This document shows positions 2,088 to 59,237 of a DNA stretch of 64,000 bases, in pieces. The notes beneath the pieces are model-generated. The model searched no databases, was not told the DNA's origin, and saw only the letters and a program-made list of their open reading frames with translations. The position numbers were made by a program, and so were the translations under genes. This DNA comes from Piezodorus guildinii (Eukaryota > Arthropoda > Insecta > Hemiptera > Pentatomidae), in assembly GCA_023052935.1 (NCBI GenBank), contig CM041297.1:5694280-5758279 (forward strand), given 5' to 3'. The first letter of the stretch is position 1; each line of letters opens with the position of its first letter.

Positions 2088-2128
2088 ACCGACGTTTCGG
2101 CTCAAGCTCGTGAGCCATCATCAGGGCT
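2088..2128 (-). other. Hammerhead-ribozyme-like motif 1
   Basis: Read on the minus strand, the segment has CTGATGA, a 5-bp hairpin stem GGCTC/GAGCC with an 8-nt loop, then GAAACGTC. This is the order of the hammerhead core (CUGAUGA - stem II - GAA - minimal ACGU stem III - cleavage base). The flanks GCC and GGT could form stem I. One extra T lies between CTGATGA and the stem, so activity is uncertain. The same layout recurs at 27954, 30581 and 59090. Confidence 0.5.
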
Positions 2129-2311
2129 ACAGACATCAGAACAAAAGATAAACATATTAATGTGATAATGAAAACATTTTTGAATGTAGTGACAACAGAA
2201 AATATACCAACATACTTAAATATTATAGATGCATTAATGATAATATGATAAACAATATGATGATGATAAGCATGAAAACAAAACTTTAAACTTTAATATA
2301 GAAGTAAAAAA

Positions 2312-3212
2312 TCTGGTGCGGGCAACACACGACTTTCACTTACCTCCATTTTTAAAATCAATGAAAGAATTTTCAAATACAGTTAAAGATAAAAATACGT
2401 GAAACTATTAAGGAATTAATTAAATTAAATTTCTATAAAAACATGTGTTTCATTAAAAAATCTATTATATTATTATCAAAAATAATCAGTTAGTTTTATG
2501 TTCATTTCATCACTCTCTATTAACTTTTAAAATCTTGTGAATGGGATGATATTTTTTCTAAAATCTTTAGCTTTCCAACGGTATGTCATACATGTAGATT
2601 ACTGCTCTTATGTTCAAAAACGAAAAATTGCATTAAAAAATATTTTTTCTGTTTTCTCCTTTAGTTGCGTATCGAATTTATTCAATTTATATATTTACCG
2701 GTTTTTCATCAGCGTTAACAAGATAATCTAGTTATTATTATTGAATCTATAAAATTAAAGGTACTTTAGGGGAAGACAATTTAAAATATCGGCATTTAAG
2801 CCCTGTCAGACCATTTTTATCCAAATAAAACCTACATGATATTTAAAGCCCATTAATTTTTACATCGATATAGCGAGTTTAATCAAAATCGTCGGAACTG
2901 TTTTCGAGAAAATTGAAAAAAGGTGCAAAATGCATGGTATAAAGTGCCACTTCTGGTAGGCTCATTTTTATGAAAAAAGTTTTGTGACGTCTCGGGCGTA
3001 TAGTTGTCTTAAATATGAAATTTCAGTTTCATAGGACTTACCGTTTCTGCCCGGGAGTTACCACACACCACACACACACACACAGACCTTTTTGCGGGAC
3101 TTGGTTATTTGGACTCAGAGGACCCTAAAAAGTGTATTTCCGTTGAAAACTGGAATTCGAAAATTTTCACGATCGCAATACTTCCCCTTACTATATATAG
3201 TAAGTGAAAGTA
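2312..3212 (+). mobile_element. Family H repeat copy 1 (Helentron-like, non-autonomous)
   Basis: A near full-length copy, about 900 bp. It starts TCTGGTGCGGGCAACACACG and ends in the palindrome CTTACTATATATAGTAAG followed by TGAAAGTAAA. The 12-mer ACTTTCACTTAC lies about 20 bp inside the left end, and its inverse lies at the extreme right end, so the terminal inverted repeats are asymmetric. An internal CA microsatellite sits near 3065-3085. There is no coding capacity. The copy is used here as the reference for orientation. Confidence 0.75.
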
Positions 3213-3370
3213 AAAAAAAAATATAAACGTACCAACCATTACTGAGCCATGTCCAATAAATAAATGTACAGTAAATAAAATATAAATTATACAATAAAGT
3301 AAGAGAGTTTTAACATAAGGAGGCGGAAGATTTTGGTATGCGAGGCAGATATTATTTCTTTGTCTGTTTT

Positions 3371-4640
3371 TCTTCTTCTTCTTGATCTTCCTCTTGGAGC
3401 CATTATTGGCGTAGAGGGGCCTCGATCCAGCGCTGCCAGTTATCCCGGTCTCCGCTGAGTCGTTTCATTTCTACAAGGATCTTGCCCCTGTTACTCCCAA
3501 TCCTCTGGACCATATCCTGATAGGAAATTCTAGGTCGGCCACGTGGTCTTCTTCCTGTAGGTCTTGCTTCCAGTGTCCTTCTGGGTTCCCTTATTTCGTC
3601 CATGCGGCAGACATGACCAAACCATTTCAATTGCCTGTTTTCCATTATCGTCTTCAATGGTGGTACCTCGAGTTGCTCTCTGATTCTATTGTTCCGGACA
3701 CAATCTCGCCTTGTCTTCCCCGCTGCTCTACGTAAAAATTTCATTTCAGCAGCAGTGATTCGGCTGATATGTTTGTCGAGCATCACCCAACTCTCGCCTC
3801 CATATGTAAGCACTGGTAGGTAAATGCCTTTATAGATGTGCATCTTAACATCTCGCCCTACTTCACGGTGTCCTATTATACTATTGTTGATCTGGTAGTA
3901 CACCTGGTTCGCTTTATTGATCCTATTTCCAATCTCTTGGTCAATTCTGCCAGACCTGTCTATAATGGTTCCCAGGTAATTGAATTCATTTACCACTTCT
4001 AGGGTCTTCCCATTGCATACCATTTCAACATTTTCTTCTTCATTCCGTGAGAGAACCAGAATTTTACTTTTGGAGTCGTTGATGGACATTCCCTTACGCA
4101 ATAGTTCTGCCTCCCATTCCACCAGAGCTTGTTGCAGCTTTTCTTTTGTGTCCGCTAATAGAACAATGTCATCGGCATATAGGAGGCATTTCACCAGAAC
4201 TGTCTGCTTCTTCCATTTTCCTATTTCAGTCCATGCCGTTCTTCGCTTGCAGACTTTATGGATCTCGTCCATCAGAATCAAGAATAGGAGAGGGCTAAGA
4301 CTGTCCCCCTGTCTGACTCCTCTATCAAGAGGAAATGATTTGGATTCTCTACCATTGATTCTGACGACTCCCTTTGCATATCTGTATGTTGATTGGATTG
4401 CCTGCATCAAATCTGATGGTACATTCTTTGCAGCAAGAGCATTCCATATTTCATATCTAGGCACAGAATCGAACGCAGCTTTGAGATCCAGGAAAGCCAC
4501 ATAGATACTTTTATTTCTGTCCCAAACCTTTTCAGAAATGTGGTCCTGGGCCTGTCTTCCCGGGCGGAAGCCCGCCTGCTCCTCTTCGAGTAGATTTTCC
4601 ACAATACTTCTCAATCTTCTCACAAGGATAGAGGTGTACA
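3371..4640 (-). mobile_element. 5'-truncated RTE-like LINE with (AAG)n tail
   Basis: A 12-bp target-site duplication, TTTGTCTGTTTT, occurs at 3359-3370 and 4641-4652. On the minus strand the 3' end is an (AAG)n-type simple repeat instead of poly(A). The truncated 5' end falls inside the RT gene, so the endonuclease and the first RT motifs are missing. The whole remaining insert is open reading frame. Confidence 0.88.
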
Positions 4641-4641
4641 T
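3403..4641 (-). CDS. Non-LTR retrotransposon reverse transcriptase, C-terminal part
   Basis: A 412-codon uninterrupted frame with RT motifs in order: GFRPGR (about residue 24), FLDLKAAFDSV (about 50), GVRQGDSLSPLLF (about 108) and the catalytic box YADDIVLLAD (about 154). The post-RT 'thumb' and a C-terminal domain follow, with RQLKWFGHV and the GRRPRGRPR basic stretch near residue 365, typical of RTE-like LINE ORFs often mis-annotated as host genes. The first base of the apparent ATG belongs to the target-site duplication, so the start is accidental. The upstream apurinic endonuclease domain is absent. The intact frame suggests a fairly recent insertion, but it cannot retrotranspose alone. 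Confidence 0.85.
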   Translation of the reverse strand: MYTSILVRRLRSIVENLLEEEQAGFRPGRQAQDHISEKVWDRNKSIYVAFLDLKAAFDSVPRYEIWNALAAKNVPSDLMQAIQSTYRYAKGVVRINGRESKSFPLDRGVRQGDSLSPLLFLILMDEIHKVCKRRTAWTEIGKWKKQTVLVKCLLYADDIVLLADTKEKLQQALVEWEAELLRKGMSINDSKSKILVLSRNEEENVEMVCNGKTLEVVNEFNYLGTIIDRSGRIDQEIGNRINKANQVYYQINNSIIGHREVGRDVKMHIYKGIYLPVLTYGGESWVMLDKHISRITAAEMKFLRRAAGKTRRDCVRNNRIREQLEVPPLKTIMENRQLKWFGHVCRMDEIREPRRTLEARPTGRRPRGRPRISYQDMVQRIGSNRGKILVEMKRLSGDRDNWQRWIEAPLRQ

Positions 4642-4652
4642 TTGTCTGTTTT

Positions 4653-5217
4653 ATGATTAGTAATTTAGCAACTGAATAATAAACTTAAATTGCATTAAGT
4701 AAATTTTATTACGACTTATAAACTTTAATTTTATTATAAATTCCAAAATTTATTTGGACTTATAAGGGAAGTGTAAGTGAAGGTAGTTTGTTGGGGGCAT
4801 CAGCTTTTTTTGAAAAATATTCCAATACATTTTCACGTCTCCTATTATCAGCTATCTTATATTTGATAATTGTTATCATCGAATCATCGTTTAATCTCTT
4901 TTAATTATCAGTGATCTGGTTTTGTTTGTTCAAATAATCTTGGTGACTAATATATTTTCTATAAATAAAGCGATTCGTAATGTTATTGAACGCTATGGGT
5001 AATTATTGAGAATTTTTCAATTGCTGAAATTAATTTAAATATACTAAATTGGACTGATTGTAATATTACTCAATAAAGAACTGTTTCTGAAAAAAAATAT
5101 ATATATATAAATTTATAATTGTAATATTATTATCAAAAGTGAATTTGTTCTTACTAATTTTAATTCAACCGATATTTTTAACATTAAACACTTTCAAAAT
5201 AAATGATTGATCAAAAA
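4653..5217. other. No recognised feature
   Basis: AT-rich spacer with a short (AT)n run near 5097-5110. No coding or repeat signature was identified. Confidence 0.4.
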
Positions 5218-5470
5218 TACCAGTCCAAATTACCAAGTTTCGCAAAAATTTCTCTGTGTGTCGACCCAGCTTGAAAAAAATTAGTTATAAAGAACTGGAT
5301 TTCATATTTTAGAAGCTTATATTCCTGAGATGTTACAGCAAAATTTCATCAAACTCGGCGAAACATGAGAGCCGTTATTATCGGGGAGCCCAAACATAAT
5401 GCCATGCCTTTTGCACTTTTTACTATAAAGTATTGCGATCCTGAAAATTTGAAAAAATCGTGAAAAATAC
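5218..5470 (-). repeat. Diverged family H fragment
   Basis: Degenerate minus-orientation match to the right half of family H: the TTACCAAGT..CGCAAAAA..CTCTGTGTGTGT segment and a GCACTTTTTACTATAAAGTATTGCGATC stretch (both shortened) are recognisable. It is directly followed by a Jockey-like LINE 3' end. Confidence 0.5.
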
Positions 5471-5479
5471 AAATCTTTC

Positions 5480-5860
5480 AACCGCAATTTTTAAGACTGG
5501 CATCGAACTCACCACCATATGTTTCAAACGATACCCTTCATACTGACTGGCGTATTCCAACTACAATAAACCACATTCGACTGACTTACAAACGATTTTA
5601 CGACAAACTTAATGGACATAGAAACAAACTTGTTCAAAACAATGGCTAGAACTGTCATACCGTACAAAACTCGGCGTAGGCTGAAAAGAAGTTGGATGAG
5701 GGACCTTCTGAACTGAAAATATAGTTATGCTTAATGTGAGGAGGATGCACCACTGGGTGCTGTCTCCCTCATGCCAGCCCATGCTATTTTTATCAATATA
5801 ACTCATTTACTGATTGTAACTTATACAACTGCAAATAAAATTATTAAGTTAAAAAAAAAA
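5480..5860 (+). mobile_element. Jockey-like LINE (family J3) 3' end
   Basis: Matches 62815-63200 closely: RT C-terminal tail (frame with RRRLKRSWMRDLL), then a 3' UTR containing GAGGAGGATGCACCACTGGG, AATAAA and an A-run at 5850-5860. It is 5'-truncated, and many frame disruptions leave no usable protein. Confidence 0.75.
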
Positions 5861-6598: not shown

Positions 6599-6719
6599 GT
6601 GTAAATCTAAATAGTCTTCTTCCAAAGTACATTTAATTTTGTAGATTCGAAAAAAAACAAAACATATAGTCTTGTTAGCATTGATAAATAACGGCGATAT
6701 ATGCAATTTGAGCAATTTT

Positions 6720-7190
6720 TTTTTACTTAGTAAACACGTTGAGTGATCGATGCTGTTGGAGTACACCATATAAATCCAGACTATTTGGCATTCCAACATT
6801 TCTGAAGTTAAAAATAAAAGATGAACTATAAATATAGTAATCCGAAATAATCTCAAGACGTTTGCATATAATTCTCTGCCTTAATCCTCGGAAAACAATT
6901 TCTGGGCTGAGACTTCTCGAAAAGTGTCACCAACCGATATAATTAGCTTCTGGTTAGCGATTCATCTGCGTTTCGGTCTTTTTCTTCTTCTCTAAAGGCG
7001 CTATAAATTGAACTTATAAATTTTCTCTCCGAGTAAATCAGGACAAATGAGACGTGTGTGGAATCTCGAAACTCAAAATAAACAGGGTCTTCTTAAACTC
7101 TTGAAATATTACACAAACTGCTCTGACAATCTTTACTTGCTGTGAAAAAGGGACTTTTACATGGTGATATTTTAACTGTTATTAACAAAA
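6720..7190. other. No recognised feature
   Basis: Moderately AT-rich sequence without a recognisable gene or repeat. A 90-codon minus-strand frame (6856-6584) begins here, but it overlaps repeat sequence and is not supported. Confidence 0.4.
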
Positions 7191-8790: not shown

Positions 8791-8799
8791 CTATGATTC

Positions 8800-9240: not shown

Positions 9241-9252
9241 GAACCAGTTATA

Positions 9253-27330: not shown

Positions 27331-27888
27331 ACGGGTTTCTTTTCCCGTGATTTGATTTTTTATAACTCCCACAGAAACTAATATTTCATAAAATGAAAAT
27401 TATTTTTAAAATGATTGATAAGGCAGAAATTTAAACACCACAGTTCGCCTCACTATTAAAGTAAATTATAACAATAAAATAAGTGAAGTAATTGTTTTTC
27501 CTTCTTATCTATAATTACTCCTCGAAAAGTAATCACTACCTAATCGTATTAATTAACAATTAAAAGTGATATCAATGAATAAATAGCCTGGATGGATGGG
27601 TTGGATCGATGAAAAAAAACGATCGTGTAAAGAGTTTCTCAGTCAGTCGTTTCAAATTGACGTCTTTTCCCTCACTACTTTCTTTCCTTCCAACCGATGG
27701 ACTTGAACGACGAAATGAGCGATCGTGTAAGTGAGGTTATTAAAATCTTATTTTAATAAATATGCGGAAACACCATAATTGACTATATTGACATTTTCGG
27801 CATGAAAATTTGTTTTTTTTTAATAAATAAATAATATTTTAACAGTATGATGATAAAAAAGAAAAAATGAATTTTTAAAATTTATTGG
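27331..27888. other. No recognised feature
   Basis: AT-rich sequence. GATCGTGTAAAGAGTTTC and GCGATCGTGTAAGTGAGG near 27622 and 27720 are short repeats of each other. No gene recognised. Confidence 0.35.
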
Positions 27889-28555
27889 AAGGAATTAGTC
27901 CGGGTGGCGGTCATTAAATGAAATAACTAAATAGTTTCAACTATTTATTGTTTGCCAACGTTTCGACCCCCTTTGTGGGTCATCATCAGGGCTAAAAAGA
28001 TACAAAAGAATACAATTTCAATGACATTACATACAATATCATATAACCTATTGAGCTAGAGAGCGTCGGTATCAAAATATAACAGAAGAACTATATATGT
28101 AAAAAAAAAAACTTAATTAAAATACAATCACTACAGTAAAATAATGAAAGTGTTATACAAAAAAAAAAAATGTTTACTAAACAAAATTTACACAGATATC
28201 AATAATTTACATGAAATATGAAACATAAAAATATGAAGTAGAGTGGAGATACGTACCACATGGTGGGAGAACGGAAACTAGGTACTGTTTGATAGATGGG
28301 GGAGGTAGGATGGAAAATACGTAGGAAAAAAACTAGAATGGAAAGTACGCACCGTATTTATGGACTAACAACAATGGCTAAAATTCTTAATACTACCATA
28401 CGAAGAATCAATGAAATTTAACTTATCATTATAATAATGATACAGGATAAAAAAATTCTAATTCACTTCTTGAAATATCACCTATACAATAGTAAGAACA
28501 ATGATGGAAGATGTATATGGAGAAAAACTAACCGCCACCCGGACTAATTCCTTCC
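27889..28555. mobile_element. Inverted-repeat element (family M2) with hammerhead-like motif
   Basis: 25-bp terminal inverted repeats: GGAAGGAATTAGTCCGGGTG.. at 27889-27913 and its exact inverse at 28531-28555. The 667-bp interior is AT-rich and non-coding, with a hammerhead-like motif about 65 bp from the left end. The left end of a second copy is at 59613. No clear target-site duplication was identified, so the class (MITE or Penelope-like derivative) is open. Confidence 0.75.
27954..27993 (-). other. Hammerhead-ribozyme-like motif 2
   Basis: The minus strand reads GCC-CTGATGA-T-GACCC(loop)GGGTC-GAAACGTT-GGC. Stem I GCC/GGC is complementary over 3 bp and stem II over 5 bp. As at 2088, there is one additional base between CTGATGA and stem II. 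The stem II sequence differs from motif 1 but still pairs, which is covariation-like support for a structured RNA. Confidence 0.5.
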
Positions 28556-28607
28556 AGTAATTCTCAACGGTCAACTAATTATATCCACAATGTTTTAAAA
28601 TTTTTTT

Positions 28608-29639: not shown

Positions 29640-30477
29640 TCAATACACGATGATAGTTCCTCAAGGAAACAGGACTAAAGTGATACAAATTCGAAGAAAT
29701 ATTAAACTTACATAACATTCCCACGATTGAATACTTAGATCTGACCATATTCCTATCTCATTACGTTAACAAATACACTCAGAACCCTTAGGGTCAATCA
29801 CTTGACAATTACATCAGAAAATACACGACATTATCAGCTCTCCCCTCTTTGTTTTCTAAACAATTATCTCGAAAAATACGAAAATCTCACGCCCGCCCGA
29901 CATTTTGGCGTTGAGAATGCCCTATCTCTGCTGATGAAACAGGTACCAGCCACAGGTTCGCTTGTTTTTTATTTTGTCTTCTTCTGAGTCATGCTTATTT
30001 TTTTTTCGTTTCGTTCTCGCAAACAAGGCGCAGGTCATGGCGGTACGTTTCGGATTTGTTTACCTTGTGACGTATCTTTTGGAAAATCATTTCGTTTTCT
30101 GCGTATGATCTTTTGTTACACCATTTAACATCATTAAATAATTTTTTTTTTAATTATTATTTTCTTAACTGTATATAAAAGAAAAGTATTGCAAAAGTTA
30201 ATAGTTTAGTACATGTAGCAACCTTAGAAAAATGAAATTACATATTTAAAGTATCACACCTCTGAAACATTTAGGGGGCTCAGTTTTTCTCCTTGTAGGA
30301 CCCCTTCAGGTATGTGGAACTTATTAGAGGAATGAATGACGTCTGCCAAGTTTATAAATGCATTGTCATAAATACATCTTATCATTCTAATGAATTTTAG
30401 GAAAATGACAATTTCATTGAGTTTCTGTCATAATTTTTTATGTGGAACTTAGTCTAACATCTAAAAATTAAAAATTA
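29640..30477. other. No recognised feature (possible intron)
   Basis: AT-rich with a T-run near 29998-30008. No transposon motif and no exon-like frame beyond a 61-codon one at 29802-29987 without known family. If island 1 is a first exon, this would be the start of its intron. Confidence 0.3.
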
Positions 30478-30507
30478 TGGAGTTTTTGTTGACCGTTGAG
30501 AAATTAG

Positions 30508-30700
30508 ATGAGGAAGATGGTTGGGGGTGCGGTCATAAAATAGAAACACACATTTAAAACAAGTGCTATTTTAATTATTTGTCGACGTTTCGGCCTACAT
30601 TTTGGGCCTTCATCATCATAATTAATTCAAATAAATTAAAATAGCACTTGTTTTAAATGTGTGTTTTATTTTATGGCCGCACCCCCATCCATCTTCCTCA
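30508..30700. mobile_element. Inverted-repeat element (family M1), copy 1
   Basis: Long imperfect inverted arms: GAGGAAGATGGTTGGGGGTG.. at the left and CACCCCCATCCATCTTCCTC-type sequence (shortened) at the right. The arms extend inwards through AAGTGCTATTTTAATTA. The centre is the hammerhead-like motif at 30581-30619. Another copy lies at 59017-59237. Both share about 30 bp of left flank (GTTGACCGTTGAGAAATTAG). Confidence 0.75.
30581..30619 (-). other. Hammerhead-ribozyme-like motif 3 (degraded)
   Basis: The minus strand reads TGATGAAGGCC(loop)GGCCGAAACGTCGAC. The conserved C at the start of CTGATGA is changed and stem I is not formed, so it is probably a decayed version of the motif at 59090. 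Confidence 0.4.
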
Positions 30701-31023
30701 AAAAATTAAAAATGATTTTGTTTAATTGAAATAGATACCAAACTTCTTATTGAAGGTTGACATGTGAAAAGCAATAAAACATTATTATTATTATTATAGT
30801 TAAAAATTTTTATTATGAATAATAATAATTGTATTATTATATTAATTTGAACTTTCTCTTCTATTTAAATAAATCTATTTATTATTATATCACTTAACGT
30901 CTCGAGGTCTATACTGCCTCATCTTTGTAAGTATTCATTAAAAAATATTTTCTCTATTAAAACAATACAGGTCATTAATCATTATAAAATTGATTTTTAT
31001 TTGTATTTTACAATTGTCATCAT

Positions 31024-41704: not shown

Positions 41705-41731
41705 TCGACGTTTCGGGGTTTTGTCCCCATT
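41705..41731 (-). other. Hammerhead-like half motif interrupted by a LINE
   Basis: The minus strand shows GGGGACAAAACCCC-GAAACGTC-GATG, i.e. stem II and the GAAACGTC half. The CTGATGA half is displaced by the LINE insertion, whose target duplication TTTGTCCC falls in the stem II loop (41721 and 42203). Confidence 0.4.
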
Positions 41732-49518: not shown

Positions 49519-49861
49519 TGCATATTTTTATCGCAGTTTTAAGAACCGAGTTTCCGCAGATCCGAACTTTTTCCGCAAATCCAGAATTAGGACTACCGCC
49601 TAGGATTCCTCACCTGTGAAGACTCAAGATTTTGGCTTACCTACCGAGGACTACCAACTTCGAGATCTTCAGATTCTGGACGAGTTCACTCACCCCGAGC
49701 ATCTCGCAACGCAGGCAAAGTCTCTTATCTGCACTCAACCTTGGCCGGACTTCACTGTCGTCAGGTATCCAGCTCAAGGACAGATCTTCACACCCCGTCG
49801 AAGATTATTTTGACAGCGTACTCAATTTTTGTAAGTTAATTTCCTTTACTATTGTAATTTT
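49519..49861 (+). other. 5' leader of the LTR element
   Basis: Untranslated leader between primer site and gag. Two overlapping small frames (49616-49813, 49632-49880) have no recognisable product. The RNA packaging signal, and a splice donor if env is made from a spliced mRNA, would be expected here or just inside gag; none could be pinned down. Confidence 0.6.
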
Positions 49862-50992
49862 ATGTCTGATGATTATTTAAATTCTTTAATCCTGCGAGTA
49901 AATAATTTAACATTAACTACAAATATGGCAAGCTTTCAAATTAAATCGGCAGACTACGATCATATCCCTAATTTTAATGGAAATCCACACAATCTGTTAA
50001 AATTCGTGACAGTTTGTAGACAAGTTTACCAAATCGTGTGTAAACCGGACAACTCGTTTAAGGAACTAAACGAACAAAGATTATTAAGTAAACTTTTAGC
50101 AAAACTTACGGATGAAGCTGATTATATAAATACAACGTGCGAATTTAGTCGTGTTGAAGAATTACTAAATTATCTCGAAAGAACCTTCAGAGACAGCCGC
50201 TCAATTGAACAATTATCGCATGAATTATTTAATAACAAAATACATCATAAGGAACACCCTCTTGATTTCCTTCAAAGAATTGATAAGATCCGCACTTTAA
50301 TAATTTCTAAACATCGGATAGAAAACACACCAAATAGAGAAACAATTATTAGCGCATTAGAGAAAAGTATTCTTTATTTTTTTTACACTAACATGCCCCT
50401 TCACATAAGAACATATCTTATGACTAAAGCAGAAAAGTTAAGAACATTAGATGATTTGAGAAATTTAATTCAGAATGAGAACCATCTACTCTTCGATGAC
50501 CTCATAAATTCGGGAAATATGAGAAGACCCGGAGAACATGATTACAAAAGAGGCTTCGACCATAAGAAAAAGTTCGATAAAAAACATCACAAACGATTTA
50601 ATAATTGGCAAAATCCCAATAACCCGTATAACCCACATAATCAAAGACAAGAGCATCAATATCGACAACAAGAACCTCCACAAGACTACCGGCAGAATAA
50701 TAATAATAATAATTATTACCAACAATGGCCCCGTCAAGAACAACAAAGGTATTTCAACGGTTCAGGTCGATACCGGAATCAAAATTATAATAATAATAAG
50801 AAAGATGAAAATCCAACTGTATCCATGAGAACAGTTAGCGCATTCGGGAATAAACCGAAACAGCCTAATTTCCAAATTCAGCAAGAAGACCCGAAAGACC
50901 AAGAAATCAGAGAATTAAGAGAGAAATTAGAAAAATTAGATCCAAATAATTCTTTTTTAGAGAAAGGCCCGCCAGACAATCAAAACACATAA
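49862..50992 (+). CDS. gag: Gag polyprotein
   Basis: 376 codons. It begins at the ATG of 49862, with a second in-frame Met at residue 22. The first about 215 residues are a helical capsid-like region (for example LLKFVTVCRQVYQIV near residue 45 and HPLDFLQRIDKIR near 138). From about residue 220 the protein is basic and very rich in Asn, Gln, Arg and Tyr, then ends with a charged, probably coiled segment (QEIRELREKLEKL). There is no CCHC zinc knuckle, as in most errantivirus Gags, where the basic tail binds RNA instead. It lies directly after the leader and overlaps the protease frame at a probable -1 frameshift site near codons 364-366. Confidence 0.9.
   Translation: MSDDYLNSLILRVNNLTLTTNMASFQIKSADYDHIPNFNGNPHNLLKFVTVCRQVYQIVCKPDNSFKELNEQRLLSKLLAKLTDEADYINTTCEFSRVEELLNYLERTFRDSRSIEQLSHELFNNKIHHKEHPLDFLQRIDKIRTLIISKHRIENTPNRETIISALEKSILYFFYTNMPLHIRTYLMTKAEKLRTLDDLRNLIQNENHLLFDDLINSGNMRRPGEHDYKRGFDHKKKFDKKHHKRFNNWQNPNNPYNPHNQRQEHQYRQQEPPQDYRQNNNNNNYYQQWPRQEQQRYFNGSGRYRNQNYNNNKKDENPTVSMRTVSAFGNKPKQPNFQIQQEDPKDQEIRELREKLEKLDPNNSFLEKGPPDNQNT
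50953..50959 (+). promoter_or_regulatory. Probable -1 ribosomal frameshift site
   Basis: T TTT TTA lies in the gag frame (codons TCT TTT TTA) 11 codons before the gag stop, and is a canonical X XXY YYZ heptamer. The protease/pol frame is exactly -1 and becomes open just upstream (after the stop at 50947-50949). A shift here would join Gag to protease. No downstream pseudoknot was modelled. Confidence 0.75.
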
Positions 50993-51597
50993 AAGAAGAG
51001 AATAAAAGCCAACTGCCTTATGTTAAAGACCACGCGAATCGTAAATGGCTTATTGATACCGGATCTTGGAAGAATTATATAAGACCAGACATTGTACCAC
51101 CAGATGTTGAAAGAGAAAAAGAAAATTTTACAATAAAAACAGCAACCGGAGAAGAACTTGGCACGGAATCTATTTCAGTTTATTGCAGAAATAATTTTCT
51201 TAAAAACCCCGAAAAAATAAAATTTTATCTATTTAATTTCAGTCCCAATTACGAAATACTACTAGGAAATGAGACAATGAGGGAAATGAAATTTAATATC
51301 GATTTCGAAGCCAACAAAATAAAAACTCGCTATACAGAGTTTGATTTTATTATGGAAGACGAAGTTTTAAAGTTAGTTTTGAAAGAAGGCGAAAATCAGA
51401 TAAAAGTAGAACAAAATAAAAATCTATATTTTATTGACTATGAAGATGATAAGATTAAAATTAAACCTGGCATCTATGATCAAAATATAATAATCGACAG
51501 TAAAGTTAACGAAACCATATATTTACCTTTATACTATTTGCAAAAAGAAGAAGTAGAATTAACAGATTCTAATAAAAAAGGAAACCATGAAATATGA
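50959..51597 (+). CDS. pol: Pol: aspartic protease region
   Basis: The -1 frame after the slip site runs to the stop at 51595-51597. The catalytic box WLIDTGS is at 51046-51066 (catalytic Asp codon 51055-51057), and a second retropepsin landmark, YEILLGNE, is near 51250-51273. It has no own ATG at the domain start and is therefore expected as a Gag-Pol fusion. A poorly conserved connector to RT follows. The RT frame begins at 51587, overlapping by 11 bases and shifted by one base, so translation through to RT needs either a second recoding event or reinitiation, or the frame change is a lesion (an A6 run lies at 51571-51580). Confidence 0.82.
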   Translation, partial: RERPARQSKHIKEENKSQLPYVKDHANRKWLIDTGSWKNYIRPDIVPPDVEREKENFTIKTATGEELGTESISVYCRNNFLKNPEKIKFYLFNFSPNYEILLGNETMREMKFNIDFEANKIKTRYTEFDFIMEDEVLKLVLKEGENQIKVEQNKNLYFIDYEDDKIKIKPGIYDQNIIIDSKVNETIYLPLYYLQKEEVELTDSNKKGNHEI

Positions 51598-53698
51598 ACA
51601 AATCCCCCAACTAATCAGAACCGACCATATACCTCCTCAAGAAAAATCAAATTTAATTAAATTATTATCGAAATATCCATCAGTATTTAAGACTGAAAAT
51701 GATCCCCTTTCAGCCACTGATTTATTGGAGCATAAGATTAAAACAAAAACCGAAGACCCGATATATTCGAAAAATTACAGATATCCCCACCAATTCAAAG
51801 AAAATATTAAGGAAGAAATTAAAAAGATGTTAGAATCCAAAATAATAAGACCCAGCAATTCCCCTTACAATTCTCCCGTTTGGATTGTCCCGAAAAAGCC
51901 AGACGCATCAGGAAAAAGAAAAATACGAATGGTGATTGATTACAGGAAATTAAATCGAGAAACAACCCCGGATAAATTCCCCATTCCTAATATTGAAGAC
52001 CTTTTAGGCAAATTAGGAAAAGCGACGATATTTACAGCAATGGACCTTTGCTCAGGCTTCCATCAAATAAAAGTCGAAGAAAGTTCTATCCCAAAAACAG
52101 CATTTTCTACAGATCAAGGCCACTTTGAATTCCTTCGCATGCCATTTGGACTCAGTAATGCCCCAGCAAATTTTCAAAGAGCCATGAATATCATTTTTTC
52201 AGATTCTATTAACGTTTTAGTCTATATGGACGATATTATAATTTTTTCTGAAAATTACAAAGATCATTGGAAACATTTAGAAGAAACTCTTAAAAAGTTA
52301 GAAAAACATAACTTAAAGATTCAGCTCGATAAGACAGAATTTTGCAAGAAAGAATTGTTATTCCTCGGACATATTATCAGCGAACGCGGCATAGAACCTA
52401 ATCCAGAAAAGATAAAAGCAGTAAAAGATTTTAAACTCCCTAAAAATGAAAAAGAAATTAAAAGCTTTTTAGGATTAACTGGTTTCTATAGGAAAATGAT
52501 ACCAAATTACGCAAAGATAGCTTCCCCATTAACGAGATGTCTTCGAAAAGATCAAAAAGAAATCAAACCAGAGTTATATGAAAACGCTTTTGAGAAATTG
52601 AAACAACTTGTATGTAGTAGCCCCATTTTGCAAATTCCAGATTTCAATCAGGACTTTTTCTTAACAACTAACGCAAGTAATTTCGCCATTGGTGCAGTAT
52701 TAGCACAGAAGAAAGATGGAAAAGAACTCCCTGTATGTTTTGCATCCAGAACACTTAATAAAGCAGAACAAAATTACTCAACAACGGAAAAGGAATGTTT
52801 AGCCATTATTTGGGCTTGCAATCATTTTCGACCCTACTTATACGGTAGAAAATTTTTCATATATTCAGATCACAAACCTTTAGAATATTTAAGAACGTGT
52901 AAAACACAGAACGCCAGATTAATTAGATGGAAATTATTGTTAGAAGATTTCGAATATGACATAAAATACATTGAAGGAAAGGCTAATAAAGTCGCCGATC
53001 ATTTATCCCGTTACCCTATTGAAGAAAGGAAATTAAAAGAACCAGAATTTGATATTTTTCATACAGAAAATTCTCCTAATAACTATTCACAAGAAATCGT
53101 AGATTTATTACAAGAAATGGGAATAGAAGAAACCCAAGAAGAAGCTAACAATGAAAACTTAGAAGGAATTAATAATGATGAAAACATAGAAGAAAATAAT
53201 AATGGTGAACACCAAGAAATAATTCAAGATGATATATCTTCTTTAGCAACGCAGCACTCCACAGAATCCTCCGATAACAGAATCTTAATAGTTGATGATA
53301 AATCTAGACCAGTAAATGTTGAGAAAAATCAAATAATAATAAAAAAGGGACACGCGAAAATTCAACGCGAAACAATATTCAATAATAAGCAAAGAACAAC
53401 AATTGAATTTACTTGGCCTTATCATGAAAAAGATTTTGAAATAGAAGAAAAACTTTTAGAAATCTTAAGACCAAATATAACTTACGGCATATACTGCTCA
53501 CCCATATCAGATTCTATAGAAAGTGAAAATAATTGGTATAATGCATTATTTAATAAAGTTGCATCACTCATTAGAGAAAAATTTCCCACAAATAGAATTA
53601 AAAGATATTATAAACTATTGCCAGATGTAAAGAACACGGAAGACCAAAATTACTTATCCTTGATTATCATATCGCCAAGACATGCCACAGAGGTATAA
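51587..53698 (+). CDS. pol: Pol: reverse transcriptase and RNase H
   Basis: 703 codons. RT motifs run in order: SPYNSPVWIVPKKP (about residue 93), MVIDYRKLN, FTAMDLCSGFHQI with the first catalytic Asp (about 145), FLRMPFGLSNAP, and the active-site YMDD at residues 213-216. Then come FLGHIIS and SFLGLTGFYRKMI. RNase H follows: NASNFAIGAVLAQ (from residue 362), TTEKECLAIIWA and YSDHKPLEYL. The first RNase H catalytic Asp is Asn here (codon 52670-52672), while the Glu and second Asp remain. An acidic, Asn-rich linker leads to a stop at 53696-53698, where the frame leaves that of integrase by one base. Confidence 0.92.
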   Translation: MKYEQIPQLIRTDHIPPQEKSNLIKLLSKYPSVFKTENDPLSATDLLEHKIKTKTEDPIYSKNYRYPHQFKENIKEEIKKMLESKIIRPSNSPYNSPVWIVPKKPDASGKRKIRMVIDYRKLNRETTPDKFPIPNIEDLLGKLGKATIFTAMDLCSGFHQIKVEESSIPKTAFSTDQGHFEFLRMPFGLSNAPANFQRAMNIIFSDSINVLVYMDDIIIFSENYKDHWKHLEETLKKLEKHNLKIQLDKTEFCKKELLFLGHIISERGIEPNPEKIKAVKDFKLPKNEKEIKSFLGLTGFYRKMIPNYAKIASPLTRCLRKDQKEIKPELYENAFEKLKQLVCSSPILQIPDFNQDFFLTTNASNFAIGAVLAQKKDGKELPVCFASRTLNKAEQNYSTTEKECLAIIWACNHFRPYLYGRKFFIYSDHKPLEYLRTCKTQNARLIRWKLLLEDFEYDIKYIEGKANKVADHLSRYPIEERKLKEPEFDIFHTENSPNNYSQEIVDLLQEMGIEETQEEANNENLEGINNDENIEENNNGEHQEIIQDDISSLATQHSTESSDNRILIVDDKSRPVNVEKNQIIIKKGHAKIQRETIFNNKQRTTIEFTWPYHEKDFEIEEKLLEILRPNITYGIYCSPISDSIESENNWYNALFNKVASLIREKFPTNRIKRYYKLLPDVKNTEDQNYLSLIIISPRHATEV

Positions 53699-54840
53699 AT
53701 GAAACATATTTAGTTTTGAAAACCAAATTTTATTGGCCCAATATGAAAGATCATATCACAGAAATTATAAACAAATGTGACACATGTGGAAAAGGCAAAT
53801 ACGATAGAAGACCTATAAAACAAAAATTTAAAATTACTCCCACACCTGAGAAACCCTTTACAGATTTAATGATTGATACCTTACACATGAGTAATTATTA
53901 CATTTATTTAATAGTAGATACTTTTTCCAAAAGAATATTTTCTTATTACGCAACGAGTTATAATGCCATAGAAAGCATGAAAGTATTGAAAAAATATTTA
54001 GCATATTTTCCAAAACCCCAAAAAATATCATGTGACAACGGAAGAGAATTCGACAATAACTTGTTTAAAGATTTTCTAAACTACTTAAATATTGAATTAC
54101 ATTATACTACCCCCAATCACCCTAACTCTCTTGGATTGCTTAATCGAGCAAGCTCTTCGTTATTAGAAATTTTAAGACTTATAAACATAGAAAACAAAGA
54201 TGATAAAGAGGAAGATAAGTTAGAGCAAGCAACGACAGCATATAATAATTCCCTTAATCAAGATCTTAAAATGACCCCTAACGAAATAACTTTCGGTATC
54301 ACTAATGAAACTTATAATGAATCCCCGGAAGTAAAAGAATATCTTGTTCATGAGTACCATCGGAAAATGAAGCAGCTTTTCGAAATAACTAAGAAAGGTA
54401 TAGAACAAAATAAAGAGAGAAAAATAGGCAAGTTAAATAAAAAAAGAGAAGACATAGAAATCCCGGAAGATGTGTATATAAAGAGACAACAGAAAAAGAA
54501 AATAGATCCTAAATACGAAAAAGGAAAGTATGTTGATAAAAGATTTCAAAATAGAAATAAAGGTAGAAAGAAAAAACTCCACCCTGATCAAGTCAAACGA
54601 CCGAAAAAAGTCACTAAGAAAAAGAAATCAAATAATAATAATAATAAACCTAGTACAAGTCAAAAAAACCCAGAAATAACTGATGAAGATATTGAGAATG
54701 TCATAAAAGAAATAGAAACGTCTAATGTTACAGGAGTCAGCCAAAATGACTTTGAGTTCGACGACGAATTGTTTCAAGTATCTTCTGATCGCAGCGTTTA
54801 CGGTTCAGATACAGACCCTGCTAATACAAGATTTATCTGA
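53686..54840 (+). CDS. pol: Pol: integrase
   Basis: The frame is open upstream of any ATG. The RGINETYL..KFYWPNM segment and CDTC (about 53780) form the second half of the HHCC zinc finger. The core has IDTL (Asp codon 53875-53877) and SCDNGREF (Asp 54034-54036). Exactly 35 residues further, where DD35E integrases carry Glu, it has Asn (codon 54142-54144, in GLLNRASSS). The C-terminal part is Lys-rich and then acidic, an ordinary gypsy-type tail without a clear chromodomain. The zinc finger and the missing Glu, together with the one-base offset from the RT frame, suggest a defective enzyme. The 3' end overlaps env by about 116 bases. Confidence 0.88.
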   Translation, partial: HRGINETYLVLKTKFYWPNMKDHITEIINKCDTCGKGKYDRRPIKQKFKITPTPEKPFTDLMIDTLHMSNYYIYLIVDTFSKRIFSYYATSYNAIESMKVLKKYLAYFPKPQKISCDNGREFDNNLFKDFLNYLNIELHYTTPNHPNSLGLLNRASSSLLEILRLINIENKDDKEEDKLEQATTAYNNSLNQDLKMTPNEITFGITNETYNESPEVKEYLVHEYHRKMKQLFEITKKGIEQNKERKIGKLNKKREDIEIPEDVYIKRQQKKKIDPKYEKGKYVDKRFQNRNKGRKKKLHPDQVKRPKKVTKKKKSNNNNNKPSTSQKNPEITDEDIENVIKEIETSNVTGVSQNDFEFDDELFQVSSDRSVYGSDTDPANTRFI

Positions 54841-56362
54841 CGGACCAGGAGCATCCATCGTACAAATTAATCCATCTTTTATAATTGAAGATTGGTACAC
54901 ATTTTTACATTATAAGAATCTTACAAATTTAACAAGAGAAATTCAAACCCTTAAGATTAGCATTGACGTATTAACAATTAGTAATGAATATAAAACTTTG
55001 CATAATATTATTGAACAAAAATATAACAAGATATTAGAAAAAATTAATCATATTGTAAATATAAATCGGAATAACCGATCAAAAAGAGGTTTAATTAACG
55101 GACTAGGCAATGCTATTAGTTGGCTCACCGGCAATATGGACGCCGATGACAAAGAAAAGTATGATAATATTTTAAATAAAATCGAGAGAAATATGTATCA
55201 CATAGAGCATAATGAAAATGTTAGATTAGGATTAAATAAAGAATTAACATCTAAACTTAATAAAGAAATAATTGTTTTAAATAAATATAAGGATAGTATA
55301 GAAAAAATAAATAATTTTACAGATTTAGCTCTTACTAAGTTAATGTATCATGATTTATTAGCCGTATTAGATTTAGTAGAAAATCAATTAAATGATATAG
55401 AATTTTCCTTAGAACAATGTAAATTAGGAATTACCCATCCAAGCATATTAACGACTAGAGAACTAGAACAATTAAACATACCGTTCGGAGAACCAATCAC
55501 AGAAAATGTAGAATTAAACTGGTTACTTAGCTCCACATTTTGTTCCCTATCAGATACAGGATTAATTTATTATTTTATTAAAATCCCTTTGAAATCATTG
55601 CCAAAAACAACTTATTATGCTATGTCATATCCAGTTACAAGGAATAATAAAGTCATTACTCTAAAGATTAAAGAACAACTAATCATTAGATTTAAAAATT
55701 CGTTTTACAATGGAAATTGTATTAAATTCAATAATCATCATTACTGTAAGGACATGATAGAGATTAAGGACAAATGTATTTTAGAATTATGTAAGAATAT
55801 AGAATTAAATGATTGTAAAGCTGTAGAAATAAGAACAAACCCTATAATCAAACTTATACCCACATTACACCAATATTTAACCTTTAATATTAGCAATGTA
55901 ACAACTAGTGTAACAAACACACAAATGTATCATCTACCATCTACTAGCCTCCTTAATCTTAATGAAAATGAGAAATTTGTAAATATAAATGTACCACTTT
56001 CTTATGTTGACAATGTAAATATTCCTTTTATTTCCTATCATTCTGTTAATAATAAAACTATTGTATCAACAAATTTTACTTTTGAGGAATTACAACAAAT
56101 AGACTTAAGTAATATAGAAATAGAAGAATTAGAACCTTATGATATAACTGTATCCCAATTTATTTCTTATATATTTTATGCAATATGTTTATATCTTTTA
56201 TGTTATAATCTTTATCGTCAGTATTGTAAACTGAAATTACTGTGTTCTAATCCTTCAAATGATAATCCAAGTACCCATCCTCAACCACCTGAATGTTTTG
56301 ATGGCAGAGCCAGAGCTTGGTTTCAATATTTACAGAATAGACAAACCGTCCCAAATCCTTAA
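54725..56362 (+). CDS. env: Env glycoprotein, baculovirus F-like
   Basis: 545 codons. Hydrophobic N-terminal segment (about residues 18-32, signal peptide), furin-type cleavage site RSKR at residues 118-121 followed by a glycine-spaced hydrophobic fusion-peptide-like segment. A long helical, coiled-coil-like region follows (about 140-235), then Cys pairs near 340-375, several N-x-S/T sites, and one membrane anchor (about 479-499) before a short cytoplasmic tail. This is the layout of errantivirus Env proteins related to the baculovirus F fusion protein. The ATG lies inside the integrase frame, so expression from a spliced mRNA, as in gypsy, is likely; splice sites were not identified. The frame is intact. 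Confidence 0.88.
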   Translation: MLQESAKMTLSSTTNCFKYLLIAAFTVQIQTLLIQDLSDGPGASIVQINPSFIIEDWYTFLHYKNLTNLTREIQTLKISIDVLTISNEYKTLHNIIEQKYNKILEKINHIVNINRNNRSKRGLINGLGNAISWLTGNMDADDKEKYDNILNKIERNMYHIEHNENVRLGLNKELTSKLNKEIIVLNKYKDSIEKINNFTDLALTKLMYHDLLAVLDLVENQLNDIEFSLEQCKLGITHPSILTTRELEQLNIPFGEPITENVELNWLLSSTFCSLSDTGLIYYFIKIPLKSLPKTTYYAMSYPVTRNNKVITLKIKEQLIIRFKNSFYNGNCIKFNNHHYCKDMIEIKDKCILELCKNIELNDCKAVEIRTNPIIKLIPTLHQYLTFNISNVTTSVTNTQMYHLPSTSLLNLNENEKFVNINVPLSYVDNVNIPFISYHSVNNKTIVSTNFTFEELQQIDLSNIEIEELEPYDITVSQFISYIFYAICLYLLCYNLYRQYCKLKLLCSNPSNDNPSTHPQPPECFDGRARAWFQYLQNRQTVPNP

Positions 56363-56389
56363 ATTTAGAGTTCAGTGGGCTTCACTCTC

Positions 56390-56402
56390 ATAAGGACGGA
56401 GG
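56390..56402 (+). promoter_or_regulatory. Polypurine tract
   Basis: TAAGGACGGAGG, purine-rich and ending exactly where the 3' LTR starts with AGTC. It is the plus-strand primer site, with one pyrimidine interruption. Confidence 0.8.
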
Positions 56403-56706
56403 AGTCACGCCACCATGAGGCCATAGTGCACCTGCAGATAACACCATATTCCTTGAATCTTATTCAGCAGTCCTATTAACCTTTATATACCCTGTCCCTT
56501 CTCCCAGGACACACACTCTCAGACTCTCACTCACACTCGCACTCTCTTCAAGTCCTCGCAGTAATTACGGTACGTCAGACCTAGTATAGCCATATTGTTA
56601 TTATCAAGATTGTCATTATTGTCTTTTAAAGTGTTATTATCGATATTTTGTAACTTTTGAATAAATAAAATATTTTTTTTACAATAACGAGTACGAACAC
56701 CAAAAT
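56403..56706 (+). repeat. 3' LTR (304 bp)
   Basis: Copy of 49197-49500 with no difference that I could see. TATATA at 56484-56489 and AATAAA at 56660-56665 are conserved. Confidence 0.97.
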
Positions 56707-57227
56707 TATGTACTACATACCAGCTTAATTTATATAATGAAACAAAAAAATAAATAATTAAAAAAAAGAAAAGATATATAACTTACAAATATCATAATCT
56801 AACTAAAAAAGAAATAAAACTTTAAACAATTCATCATATATATACTCCTAAAAAATTACTTATATTAAGATAAAAAAACAAAACAATAAAAGATAGAAAC
56901 AAAAAGAAGCAGAGAAATAGAGAAGTAAATAAAAAAATAAAAAAAACGAGAAAAAGAAAATTAAAAAATGAATAAAAATCAGCTCCAGCTCTGATTCATT
57001 TCAATTTAAAGATAACACGAAAAAAAAACTTTTAAAAAAATGTACACAATTTCGCAATAATATTTTTATATACATATATATACATATCTACATAGATGTC
57101 ACTCATACTAGATAAAATAAAATCAGATAATAATATTTCCCTAGATTTGGTTCAAGTCTGTTAAAAAGTGCTTTAGATAAAATTTTGTAGGTTACTTGTA
57201 ATAATGAAATTCCTGTATATTTGTTGT
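56707..57227. other. No recognised feature
   Basis: Extremely A-rich, low-complexity sequence (AAAAAAATAAA-type runs). No gene or repeat family recognised. Confidence 0.4.
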
Positions 57228-57460
57228 TGTTCGTTTGTTTATTTATTTAATGTCCTTTTATGCTGCTGTGGCTAATCGGAAGCTGCTACCGTGGGAGTCC
57301 TAAATTATGCCTTTAACGAGTACCTGATGTCGCACAGGCTCGGCACCACCTTTTTACGTCTTCCTTATAAAGATCATCTGCCGTGTTTGATCCCGCGACC
57401 TTGGACAAAGAAGGCTTCTATACTAGCCCCTATGCTACAGTTAACTTTCTCCATAATTGT
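57228..57460 (-). mobile_element. SINE S1-related copy
   Basis: Minus-oriented. The left edge is the S1 3' end (GTTTGTTTATTTATTTAATG), then CGATTAGCC- and CCTGTGCGACATCAGG-type blocks inverted. A tRNA-like head follows with an inverted box B (TTTGATCCCGCGACC, about 57387). The head is diverged from other S1 copies. Confidence 0.75.
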
Positions 57461-57519
57461 TATAAACCTCTTTAACTTTCTATTTTTTTTAAACATTTAC
57501 ACGTTTACAACCGCATGAG

Positions 57520-57823
57520 GATCCATGTGATACCCCAGCCGAGCACAAGCCACCGCTAGCCGGCCACGCGCACCCCAGATGATGGCGATACATCATCCAA
57601 TTGAGTCCCGACGAGCGGCCGTCGACAAGCGATTCGCTAGCCAGGAGGATGTGTCGCCGACGTCACGCGAATTTGTGAAGGATTATCCAATTGTTGGTCT
57701 CGAGGCCTTTGATCGTGTCCAGTGTCGGCTAGTACAGTCTCGATTCTTCTCTCTTCAGTTTGGATTCAGATCAGCGTGTCTCTTATGTCTTTAGTAGTTC
57801 ACCGAGCTTGGATTATGATTGAG
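57520..57823 (+). promoter_or_regulatory. GC-rich island: candidate first exon 2
   Basis: GC-rich block in AT-rich surroundings (CCAGCCGAGCACAAGCCACC, GACGAGCGGCCGTCGACAAG) followed by a strong splice-donor consensus, GAG|GTATGT, at 57824. A 71-codon frame (57579-57794) ends before the donor, so the block would be 5' UTR or the frame is chance. CGACGTCACGCG near 57659 includes a CRE-like GACGTCA. A host-gene first exon is only an inference; an unrecognised repeat is the alternative. Confidence 0.35.
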
Positions 57824-57949
57824 GTATGTCTTGGTTTTGTCTTTGGCTAAATATATTTTTTGAATTTGGAAGCCCTTGATATTTAAATATTTAGATTTTT
57901 GTTGGGAAACACTGCTTTAAAATACTCCATTATACTTCCCCCAACTAAG

Positions 57950-58329
57950 ACAATGGGAAAATATTTTTTTCTAAAATCTTTAGCTTTCCGATAGTTTTCC
58001 TAAACCAAAATTTTTGCTTTTTCCTCCTTTAGTTGGTTATCAAATTCGTTCTACTTGTATATATAGCAGTTTTTAATCTTTAGATTAGAATAAATTGTGT
58101 GTAAGATGTTTATTTATTTGCCAACTTTTTATTTATCTCAATAATAGGTTTTTGTTTCGATTTGCTTTGTTTTTTACTTATTATTATTATTTTATTGTAT
58201 ATATATGAATTTATTTATGTTCTATTTTATGTAATTTGACCATTATTATTATTTTCTGTATATATAGTATGAATGTGGTCTCTTATCAATATTATTATTG
58301 TTCATTTTGTAACAAATTGTAATATATAA

Positions 58330-58370
<41 letters not shown>

Positions 58371-58590
58371 TTAGAATAAAGCCTACTTGACATTACTATG
58401 TACTTTACATTAAATCTTTGATCGATTTTGCGAGTTCAAAATCATTAGAACAGTTTCCAATAAATCGTAAAAATGGTATCTGGCTCGCTAATTTTTTTGA
58501 AAATGTTGCTGTTACACCTCAGGCATATAAGCTTATAAAATATGAAATTTCAGTTTTACTCGCATAAACAATATCGTTAAGTGAAAGTAA
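57950..58590 (+). mobile_element. Old family H copy 15 with nested retro-insert
   Basis: 57960-58094 matches the TTTTCTAAAATCTTTAGCTT .. TTTCTCCTTTAGTTG part, and 58381-58590 matches the following GACATTA..ATCGATTTTGCGAG and TATGAAATTTCAGTTTTA parts. A poly(A)-tailed insertion with target duplication lies between. Confidence 0.65.
58095..58367 (+). mobile_element. Poly(A)-tailed retro-insertion (family P)
   Basis: A perfect 13-bp target duplication, AGATTAGAATAAA, at 58082-58094 and 58368-58380. The tail is an A-run of about 38 nt (58330-58367). The same family as 10262-10510. No frame; probably a LINE 3' end truncated to 273 bp. Confidence 0.87.
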
Positions 58591-59016
58591 TAATTTCACG
58601 TTTAATTATATCAAATATGTTTATGTTTATTTATTTTTAAATTATATATTTATTTTGGACCAACAAAATTTAAAACATTTCAAGAAAAGGTTTACAAATT
58701 CAATTTTTAACTATGGTTCATTAAATACAAAATTACTGGTCCCTCTAGCAAGCCCGAAAGCCTACCTCTGGCTGAGCTACCAACCTGCACTAACTGGCAA
58801 TCCCGACTTACTATCATCCACTGTCGCGGCGGTAATATTTCTTTGAGATCGTAAATTTCTGTTTCCGACGGCACTGTTGGATGGATTTCGAATCTGAATA
58901 GTGCATTAAAATCAAGATTTTGCGCTTCTTAACACTTTTTTTTTTTGTTGAAAAAGTGCATAGTAACGATTTTAGATTTCATAATGATGGAGTTTTGTTG
59001 ACCGTTGAGAAATTAG

Positions 59017-59237
59017 ATGAGGAAGATGGTTGGGGGTGCGGTCATAAATTAGATACACACATTTAAAATAAGTTCTATTTTAATTATGTGCCGACGTTTT
59101 GGCCTACAATGTGGGCCTTCATCAGGGTTGACTCTGAGACGCTTGACTCCTTTAGGCAGTCGGCACATAATTAAAATAGCACTTATTTTAAATGTGTGTA
59201 TCTAATTTATGACCGCACCCCCAACCATCTTCCTCAT
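59017..59237. mobile_element. Inverted-repeat element (family M1), copy 2
   Basis: Arms of about 80 bp: the left starts ATGAGGAAGATGGTTGGGGG and the right ends CCCCCAACCATCTTCCTCAT, extending inwards to GTGCCGAC / GTCGGCAC. The arms are nearly perfect. The 60-bp centre contains the hammerhead-like motif. The arm-loop structure would let the whole RNA fold into one hairpin. Confidence 0.82.
59090..59129 (-). other. Hammerhead-ribozyme-like motif 4
   Basis: The minus strand reads ACC-CTGATGA-A-GGCC(loop)GGCC-AAAACGTC-GG. Same order and the same one-base insertion before stem II. GAAAC is changed to AAAAC, which would abolish canonical catalysis. Confidence 0.45.

What the first reader, a model, noticed from the sequence alone, without database searches (positions are those of the whole stretch)
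2088..59129. Hammerhead-ribozyme-like motif shared by otherwise different repeats
At 2088-2128, 27954-27993, 30581-30619 and 59090-59129 (with remnants at 41705 and 59648), the minus strand carries CTGATGA, a short hairpin whose stem sequence differs between copies but still pairs (GGCTC/GAGCC, GACCC/GGGTC, GGCC/GGCC), then GAAACGTC/T. GCC and GGY flanks could make a minimal stem I. The palindromic ACGT in place of stem III is what is described for the dimer-acting hammerheads of Penelope-like elements and retrozymes. All copies have one extra base between CTGATGA and stem II, which is unusual for an active hammerhead. The repeats that carry it (a linear repeat, M1, M2) are otherwise unrelated, so they may be parts of one undescribed Penelope-like or retrozyme lineage.
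Basis: partly seen in the sequence, partly recalled or inferred. Interest (0 to 1): 0.85.

Follow-up and report, generated by a model that had tools for sequence, protein, structure and literature searches.

The report
Penelope retroelement hammerheads copied as arrays
The shared motif is the hammerhead-ribozyme-like part of Penelope-type retroelements that are very abundant in this (apparently insect) genome, and some of their insertions look like repeated copies of one small circular RNA, which would link these elements to circular-RNA retroelements.

Summary
Observation confirmed. The four minus-strand copies are real; the motif occurs 24,476 times in the 1.2 Gb host genome, against 3 for the reversed pattern. 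A tandem Penelope-like element (RT plus GIY-YIG) carries it (L034). M1, M2 and the linear repeat fall to Penelope families A, B and C. M1 and M2 are foldback insertions with 11-13 bp target duplications and a tail on one arm. Stem II covaries. The extra base is not disqualifying: complete three-stem hammerheads with one extra base there recur in viral contigs.

New: in families A and C a GT-AG intron ends 2 nt before the hammerhead, and spliced copies are frequent. In family A a 296-nt exon starting at the hammerhead is found joined end to start exactly at splice sites (106 joins, control 0), in arms of up to 18. Of 11 such loci examined, 8 sit in foldbacks with a tail and target duplication, some share variants across both arms, and none shows an exon-1 join. 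Best reading: rolling-circle reverse transcription of a circular spliced RNA by the Penelope machinery. RNA circles and self-cleavage are inferred, not shown.

The parts
2088..2128 (-). hammerhead-like motif, Penelope family C (GGCTC/GAGCC)
2030..2298 (-). family C repeat fragment with intron 3' end (..CTGTAG|CC) before the motif; (GATA)n after it
   Evidence: limits approximate
3237..3254 (-). family C exon-1 remnant followed by GTTGGTACGT; the intron to 2128 seems interrupted by another repeat (2299 to about 3240; inferred)
27886..28590 (-). M1: asymmetric foldback insertion of Penelope family A, tailless left arm
27954..27993 (-). hammerhead-like motif, family A (GACCC/GGGTC), unspliced (TTTTTAG|CC upstream)
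28557..28590 (+). tail of M1 (right arm; tail plus end 98% identical to L034 over 62 nt)
27873..27883 (.). target duplication TTTTAAAATTT, left
28593..28603 (.). target duplication TTTTAAAATTT, right
30476..30700 (-). M2 copy a: foldback insertion, family B; tail 30476-30508; flanked by AAAAATTAAAAAT (30463-30475, 30701-30713)
30581..30619 (-). hammerhead-like motif, family B, first C lost
58982..59236 (-). M2 copy b: foldback insertion, family B; tail 58982-59017; flanked by TTTTAGATTTCA (58970-58981) / TTTAAGATTTCA (59237-59248)
59090..59129 (-). hammerhead-like motif, family B; preceded by GTCTCAGAGTCAA|CC (59128-59140), which looks like a spliced exon 1 (donor not found)
59604..60056 (-). 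degenerate family A copy (remnant motif at 59648)

Best explanation
The motif is the minimal hammerhead of Penelope-like retroelements. It lies just inside exon 2 of the element's leader RNA, 2 nt after a 3' splice site, and before the end sequence and tail where reverse transcription starts. The Penelope enzyme primes cDNA from both sides of a staggered AT-rich cut. Each cDNA starts at the tail (one arm) or ~33 nt inside it (other arm), runs toward the RNA 5' end, and the two meet head to head: hence foldback insertions with outward-pointing hammerheads, one tail and a target duplication. A capped spliced RNA gives short foldbacks meeting at exon 1. A circular RNA made of the 296-nt exon is copied round and round into arrays. 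Shown from sequence: Penelope membership, architecture, splice-site joins, arrays. Inferred: two-sided priming, the cap, the RNA circle, rolling copying and any ribozyme cleavage.
For: L034 is a tandem RT + GIY-YIG element with the motif in each repeat. M1 aligns to it and has its tail. Families B and C: L028, L304. Orientation: among the first 100 places listed, leaving out one array, 20 '-+' against 5 other neighbour pairs within 2 kb. 24 of 26 dissected rows have exactly one tailed arm by script (in L308 and L314 the tail found lies inside the array); 21 of 26 have a repeat of 8 bp or more, median 13, against 30 of 650 mismatched pairings. Introns and spliced copies. Exact genome counts for family A: 2,844 intron joins, 1,265 exon1-exon2 joins, 106 exon2-exon2 joins; reversed controls 0. 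Arms of spliced foldbacks meet at exon 1: 21 of 27 pairs are 53-69 nt apart. Arrays: one variant in 14 of 14 complete units on both arms of L305; no exon-1 or intron join in 11 loci.
Against: No RNA data. Rfam hammerhead models do not hit the window at E 10. Stem I is only ~3 bp and stem III cannot form within one copy. Loci with other, non-splice tandem joins exist (L315, L316), so repeats also arise otherwise. Tandem Penelope units are themselves near identical (two L034 units: 0 substitutions, 10 gap positions in 3,986 columns), so a spliced linear multi-unit RNA could also give like units. Only 4 of the 11 loci have three or more joins in an arm on a two-armed structure, and 3 of 11 show no target duplication. 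Four of 21 array arms end at unit position 27-30, near the hammerhead, not at random. No arrays among 56 CAG|CCC places of family B; C was not searched. The family-B 5' splice site was not found.
Confidence: 0.72

Rival explanations
1. Same Penelope origin, but the 296-bp arrays come from linear transcripts of tandem Penelope loci in which each unit's exon-2 donor is spliced to the next unit's acceptor; no circle is needed.
For: Tandem Penelope loci exist (L034; three units at C3:115063220-115072549) and the two L034 units compared are near identical, so shared variants within an array would follow.
Against: 18 joins in one arm (L306) needs a locus of ~70 kb; I see no run of more than three units among the 88 scored of 3,248 candidates, a partial list. 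A linear RNA would start with exon 1, yet none of 11 loci holds an exon-1 join, whereas short spliced foldbacks do reach it.
Confidence: 0.2
2. Arrays grew after insertion by unequal crossing-over or slippage from a dimer.
For: Non-splice tandems exist (L315, L316), and four of 17 complete units of L306 carry changes of their own.
Against: 10 of 11 loci have the join on both arms, and variants are shared across arms in L305, L307, L309, L310; growth in one arm would not do that.
Confidence: 0.15
3. The motif is conserved as a splice-acceptor-adjacent exon start, promoter or protein-binding element and is not a ribozyme.
For: It abuts a splice-acceptor-like sequence in three families; in the anole Penelope element, hammerhead mutants do not affect insertion in vitro and cleavage is not seen without the protein (PMC11167929).
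Against: Stem II varies with compensation while the core stays fixed; the same core with one extra base forms complete three-stem hammerheads in viral contigs.
Confidence: 0.15
4. M1 and M2 are MITEs moved by a DNA transposase.
For: Terminal inverted repeats and small size.
Against: Target duplications vary in length, one arm has a tail, arm lengths differ from copy to copy, and the ends of M1 equal those of a Penelope element.
Confidence: 0.03

Closest known systems
Penelope/Poseidon-type Penelope-like elements (PMC3846280 passages; PMC11167929 main-text section)
   Same: RT + GIY-YIG, partial tandems, inverted pLTRs, head-to-head copies, optional ~30-40 bp tail on one end, TSDs of 8-10 bp in the passages, hammerhead near the ORF start (anole); one rotifer copy has an intron in its ORF
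   Different: here a leader intron ends 2 nt before the hammerhead, spliced foldbacks and 296-nt arrays; the text I saw describes none of these
Small Penelope-associated hammerheads acting as dimers (Lunse, Weinberg, Breaker 2017; Cervera and de la Pena 2014)
   Same: minimal type lacking or reducing stem III (titles in reference lists and review passages; the papers are not held)
   Different: whether the extra base is in their models could not be checked
Metazoan non-LTR retrozymes (PMC7229834 passages)
   Same: tandem ~300-bp units, each with a type I hammerhead; circRNA templates and a Penelope helper are proposed there
   Different: units here are a spliced exon of the Penelope element itself, including part of its ORF, with minimal hammerheads; no expression data

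Membership tests
Penelope-like element | reverse transcriptase | tested here: met
   L034 ORF piece: RVT_1 E 5.6e-9; 1,060 homologues, the 120 listed mostly with RT and related Pfam domains, the named ones insect. The window copies themselves carry no ORF
Penelope-like element | GIY-YIG endonuclease, C-terminal | tested here: met
   L034 ORF piece: PF01541 E 1.3e-4, 22.6 bits, exactly at the cut-off
Penelope-like element | tandem/pLTR structure, inverted copies | tested here: met
   L034, L039
Penelope-like element | tail on one end and variable target duplication | tested here: met
   24 of 26 and 21 of 26 rows (11 of 37 rows not dissected by the script); in the window M1, M2a, M2b
Penelope-like element | place in an RT tree with named Penelope elements | not tested
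   no tree built
Hammerhead ribozyme | CUGANGA ... GAAA core | tested here: met
   two window copies have core changes
Hammerhead ribozyme | stem II with compensatory change | tested here: met
   3 of 5 pairs; 0 of 500 shuffles reach cells paired, doubly changed cells or covariation score, but 92 of 500 reach the number of doubly changed pairs; rows pre-selected for pairing
Hammerhead ribozyme | stem I | tested here: inconclusive
   3 pairs, 89% of cells, little variation
Hammerhead ribozyme | stem III within one molecule | tested here: not met
   only palindromic ACGT; needs a dimer
Hammerhead ribozyme | Rfam covariance-model match | tested here: not met
   none; the three-stem viral forms in L002-L007 are missed too
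Hammerhead ribozyme | self-cleavage | not testable with these tools
   -
Retrozyme | short tandem units each with a hammerhead | tested here: met
   296-bp arrays; not the window copies
Retrozyme | non-coding unit separate from an autonomous element | tested here: not met
   unit is 99% Penelope sequence with 5' ORF part
Retrozyme | circular RNA in cells | not testable with these tools
   -
Back-spliced exon circle | exon between AG and GT, joined end to start | tested here: met
   TTTTTAG|CCC and CTCCAG|GTGACT in L034; join CTCCAG|CCCTG
MITE / DNA transposon | fixed-length target duplication, symmetric ends | tested here: not met

The most novel reading that the evidence does not exclude
A Penelope-like element makes a small exon circle by splicing, and its enzyme copies that circle by rolling-circle reverse transcription from both sides of the target cut. 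The element thereby generates hammerhead tandem arrays of the retrozyme kind: a route from an autonomous Penelope element to a circular-RNA retroelement. Dimer-acting hammerheads in such arrays could then cut their transcripts back into monomers and close the cycle.
Probability: 0.5. Interest if true: 0.88.

Novelty: new variant of a known kind. Interest (0 to 1): 0.76.

Why it matters
It was proposed that retrozyme circles are copied into multimers by an autonomous element, with Penelope elements as a candidate (PMC7229834), but no conserved motif told which one (PMC7761336, section read). Here arrays made of a Penelope exon, mostly in insertions with Penelope ends, tail and target duplication, make that testable with one RT-PCR junction. 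The intron placed against the ribozyme, and foldbacks that meet at exon 1, give a concrete model for the long-noted inverted Penelope copies.

Tried and rejected
Rfam microRNA hits around 59046-59206: all fit the long foldback hairpin, some on both strands, below the curated cut-off; rejected. DNA-transposon reading of M1/M2: rejected. Self-priming on an antisense template (PMC3846280 passages) as the cause of inverted copies: not excluded, but the two different starts of the arms and spliced 5' ends fit two-sided priming. Family B arrays: 56 scattered CAG|CCCTGATGAAGG places, no array. A join between exon 1 and the predicted ribozyme cut was sought to detect cleavage from genomic scars: one case among the loci held (L317, landing 1 nt past the predicted site); the genome-wide count did not complete. 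The genome count of motifs without the extra base did not complete, nor its with-base twin (76), nor the GIY-YIG family search (38). Papers not held. A sequence-string search in papers found one irrelevant paper.
Full report
Observation. The window is C6:5694280-5758279 of a 1.203 Gb assembly, in which CTGATGAN{8,30}GAAACGTYGG occurs 12,269 + 12,207 times, the reversed pattern 3 times. Within the window alone the short half of the motif is only weakly enriched. Rfam gives no hammerhead hit at curated thresholds or at E 10 for the window and two of its stretches.

Identity. Three motif copies 3.98 kb apart (L034) belong to a tandem element whose ORF pieces match RVT_1 and, exactly at the cut-off, GIY-YIG. 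Window M1 aligns to the repeat of this element (70% over 703 nt) and its right end is 98% identical over 62 nt, in opposite orientation. GGCC-type motifs flank a related ORF in L028 (59% aa over 301 residues, the part that holds GIY-YIG in L034). A GGCTC-type motif whose upstream sequence resembles that of window 2088 lies head to head with a related RT ORF in L304 (36-69% aa in pieces; the stretch ends before GIY-YIG); L025 has a 35-residue match to the endonuclease end (51%). None of the other nine C-type stretches fetched held a match. So the linear repeat, M1 and M2 come from Penelope families C, A and B. A search with the family-A RT scored 88 of 3,248 candidates, mostly 98-100% identical.

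Architecture. Of the first 100 listed places, leaving out one array, 20 of 25 neighbour pairs within 2 kb have hammerheads pointing outward; outward pairs within 5 kb are 65 to 4,258 nt apart. Of 37 rows given to a script, both ends were recognised in 26 (L031 and L040 are one element). 24 of the 26 have a tail on exactly one arm, though in L308 and L314 that tail lies inside the array; in the other two (L024, L311) I see by eye a mutated tail on one arm. 21 of 26 have a flanking repeat of 8 bp or more (8-15, median 13), 5 have none, against 30 of 650 mismatched pairings. In print: inverted pLTRs, head-to-head order, a tail on one end and TSDs (PMC3846280, passages); two RT start sites that bound the tail, and cutting and extension of both strands (PMC11167929, main-text section).

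Ribozyme. From 177 motif places in the held genome loci and window, filtered for at least three stem II pairs in the reading with an extra base, 35 distinct rows came out and 34 were aligned; the filter favours pairing. On these, 88.2% of cells pair (slid controls at most 47.4%), three of five stem II pairs change on both sides, no shuffle of 500 reaches the paired cells, doubly changed cells or covariation score, 15 reach the number of pair types and 92 the number of doubly changed pairs (relatedness inflates this test). The extra base was tested elsewhere: of 9 viral-contig hits, 5 are complete three-stem hammerheads with exactly one extra base. In 119 loci of a second scan, 68 complete ones were found, 52 with one extra base and 16 with none; in 118 loci of a third, 75 with none. 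Reversed controls: 0 and 1. The patterns impose the insert and its letter, so these are not frequencies. PMC10085705 (passages) states that known alignments have no more than one or two inserted nucleotides there.

Intron. In L034 and L039 exon 1 (..CAGACG) is followed by GTACGT.. and 270-285 nt later ..TTTTTAG|CC CTGATGA; L032 and family C (L029, L304; L038 with a short intron) show the same plan. Other copies join exon 1 straight to CCCTGATGA. Exact counts for family A: 2,844 unspliced, 1,265 spliced, controls 0. By a rough backward walk, 11 family-A copies begin 20-28 nt and 11 family-C copies 27-37 nt upstream of the join, around AGTTTCC and AGTTTATGC; that this is the cap site is inference. 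In 21 of 27 spliced inverted pairs the two joins lie 53-69 nt apart, as expected if both arms run to the RNA 5' end (only the paired places among the first 100 listed were entered). For family B an acceptor-like sequence and three joined copies are seen, but the donor was not found. An intron inside a rotifer Penelope ORF is in print (PMC3846280, passage).

Arrays. The 296-nt unit runs from AG|CCCTG to CTCCAG|GTGACT, both splice-site-like in L034; the join CTCCAG|CCCTG occurs 106 times, control 0, in 34 places among the 100 listed by my count. I examined 11 of the 15 places with two or more joins. Joins per arm, minus/plus: L018 7/4, L305 14/2, L306 1/18, L307 4/2, L308 2/1, L309 2/1, L310 1/2, L311 1/1, L312 2/1, L313 1/2, L314 3/0. 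In L305 one variant is in 14 of 14 complete units, both arms; in L307 one in 6 of 6 segments; in L309 and L310 variants are in 3 of 3 segments covering them, both arms. In L018 all 9 complete units are identical; in L306 13 of 17 complete units match the L018 unit and four carry one or two changes. L308 and L313 have no shared variant. Target duplication and terminal tail: 8 of 11; not L308, L311, L314. No locus holds an exon-1 or intron join; inner arm ends lie at unit positions 12 to 286. Units match different Penelope subfamilies (position 64: A, C or T, as in L034, L039, L032), which argues for repeated formation. Four of 21 inner arm ends lie at unit position 27-30, next to stem II, as if copying stalled at a folded hairpin; this is my inference. 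L315 and L316 show that other, non-splice tandems exist.

Literature. Searches on Penelope with circular RNA, rolling circle, back-splicing and TPRT (15 listed of 72, 45 and 113) showed no title or abstract start that describes such arrays. PMC7229834 (passages) and PMC7761336 (passages and one section) propose circRNA templates for retrozymes, PMC7229834 naming Penelope elements as candidate helpers.

Verdict. Known kind (Penelope hammerhead), with new and testable features: intron against the ribozyme, spliced foldbacks, and exon-circle-like arrays.

Noticed in passing
viral contigs L002, L003, L005, L006, L007, L058-L176: Complete three-stem hammerheads with one extra base between CUGANGA and stem II recur in viral contigs; Rfam models did not hit the five in L002-L007. 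Several contigs carry two or three (L079, L101, L106, L107, L120, L162, L174).
   Followed up: partly
L057:395-720: A fourth motif type (GGGG/CCCC stem) in an inverted pair, likely another Penelope family.
   Followed up: no
L055 (near G000:C1:2360440): The hammerhead exon is joined to sequence of another repeat, as if its splice acceptor had trapped a foreign exon.
   Followed up: partly
L317, minus strand about 445-506: Exon 1 follows GAAACGTTG within 3 nt, i.e. a jump landing 1 nt past the predicted ribozyme cut; single case.
   Followed up: partly
L315, L316: Tandem Penelope fragments with 759-760 and 323-338 bp periods whose joins are not splice sites.
   Followed up: partly
window 41705-41730: GGGGACAAAACCCCGAAACGTCGATG hairpin (minus strand) abutting a LINE 3' end; unassigned.
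   Followed up: no
window 49835-56362: Gypsy-like LTR element with open gag-like, pol and downstream reading frames; the last has no Pfam match.
   Followed up: no
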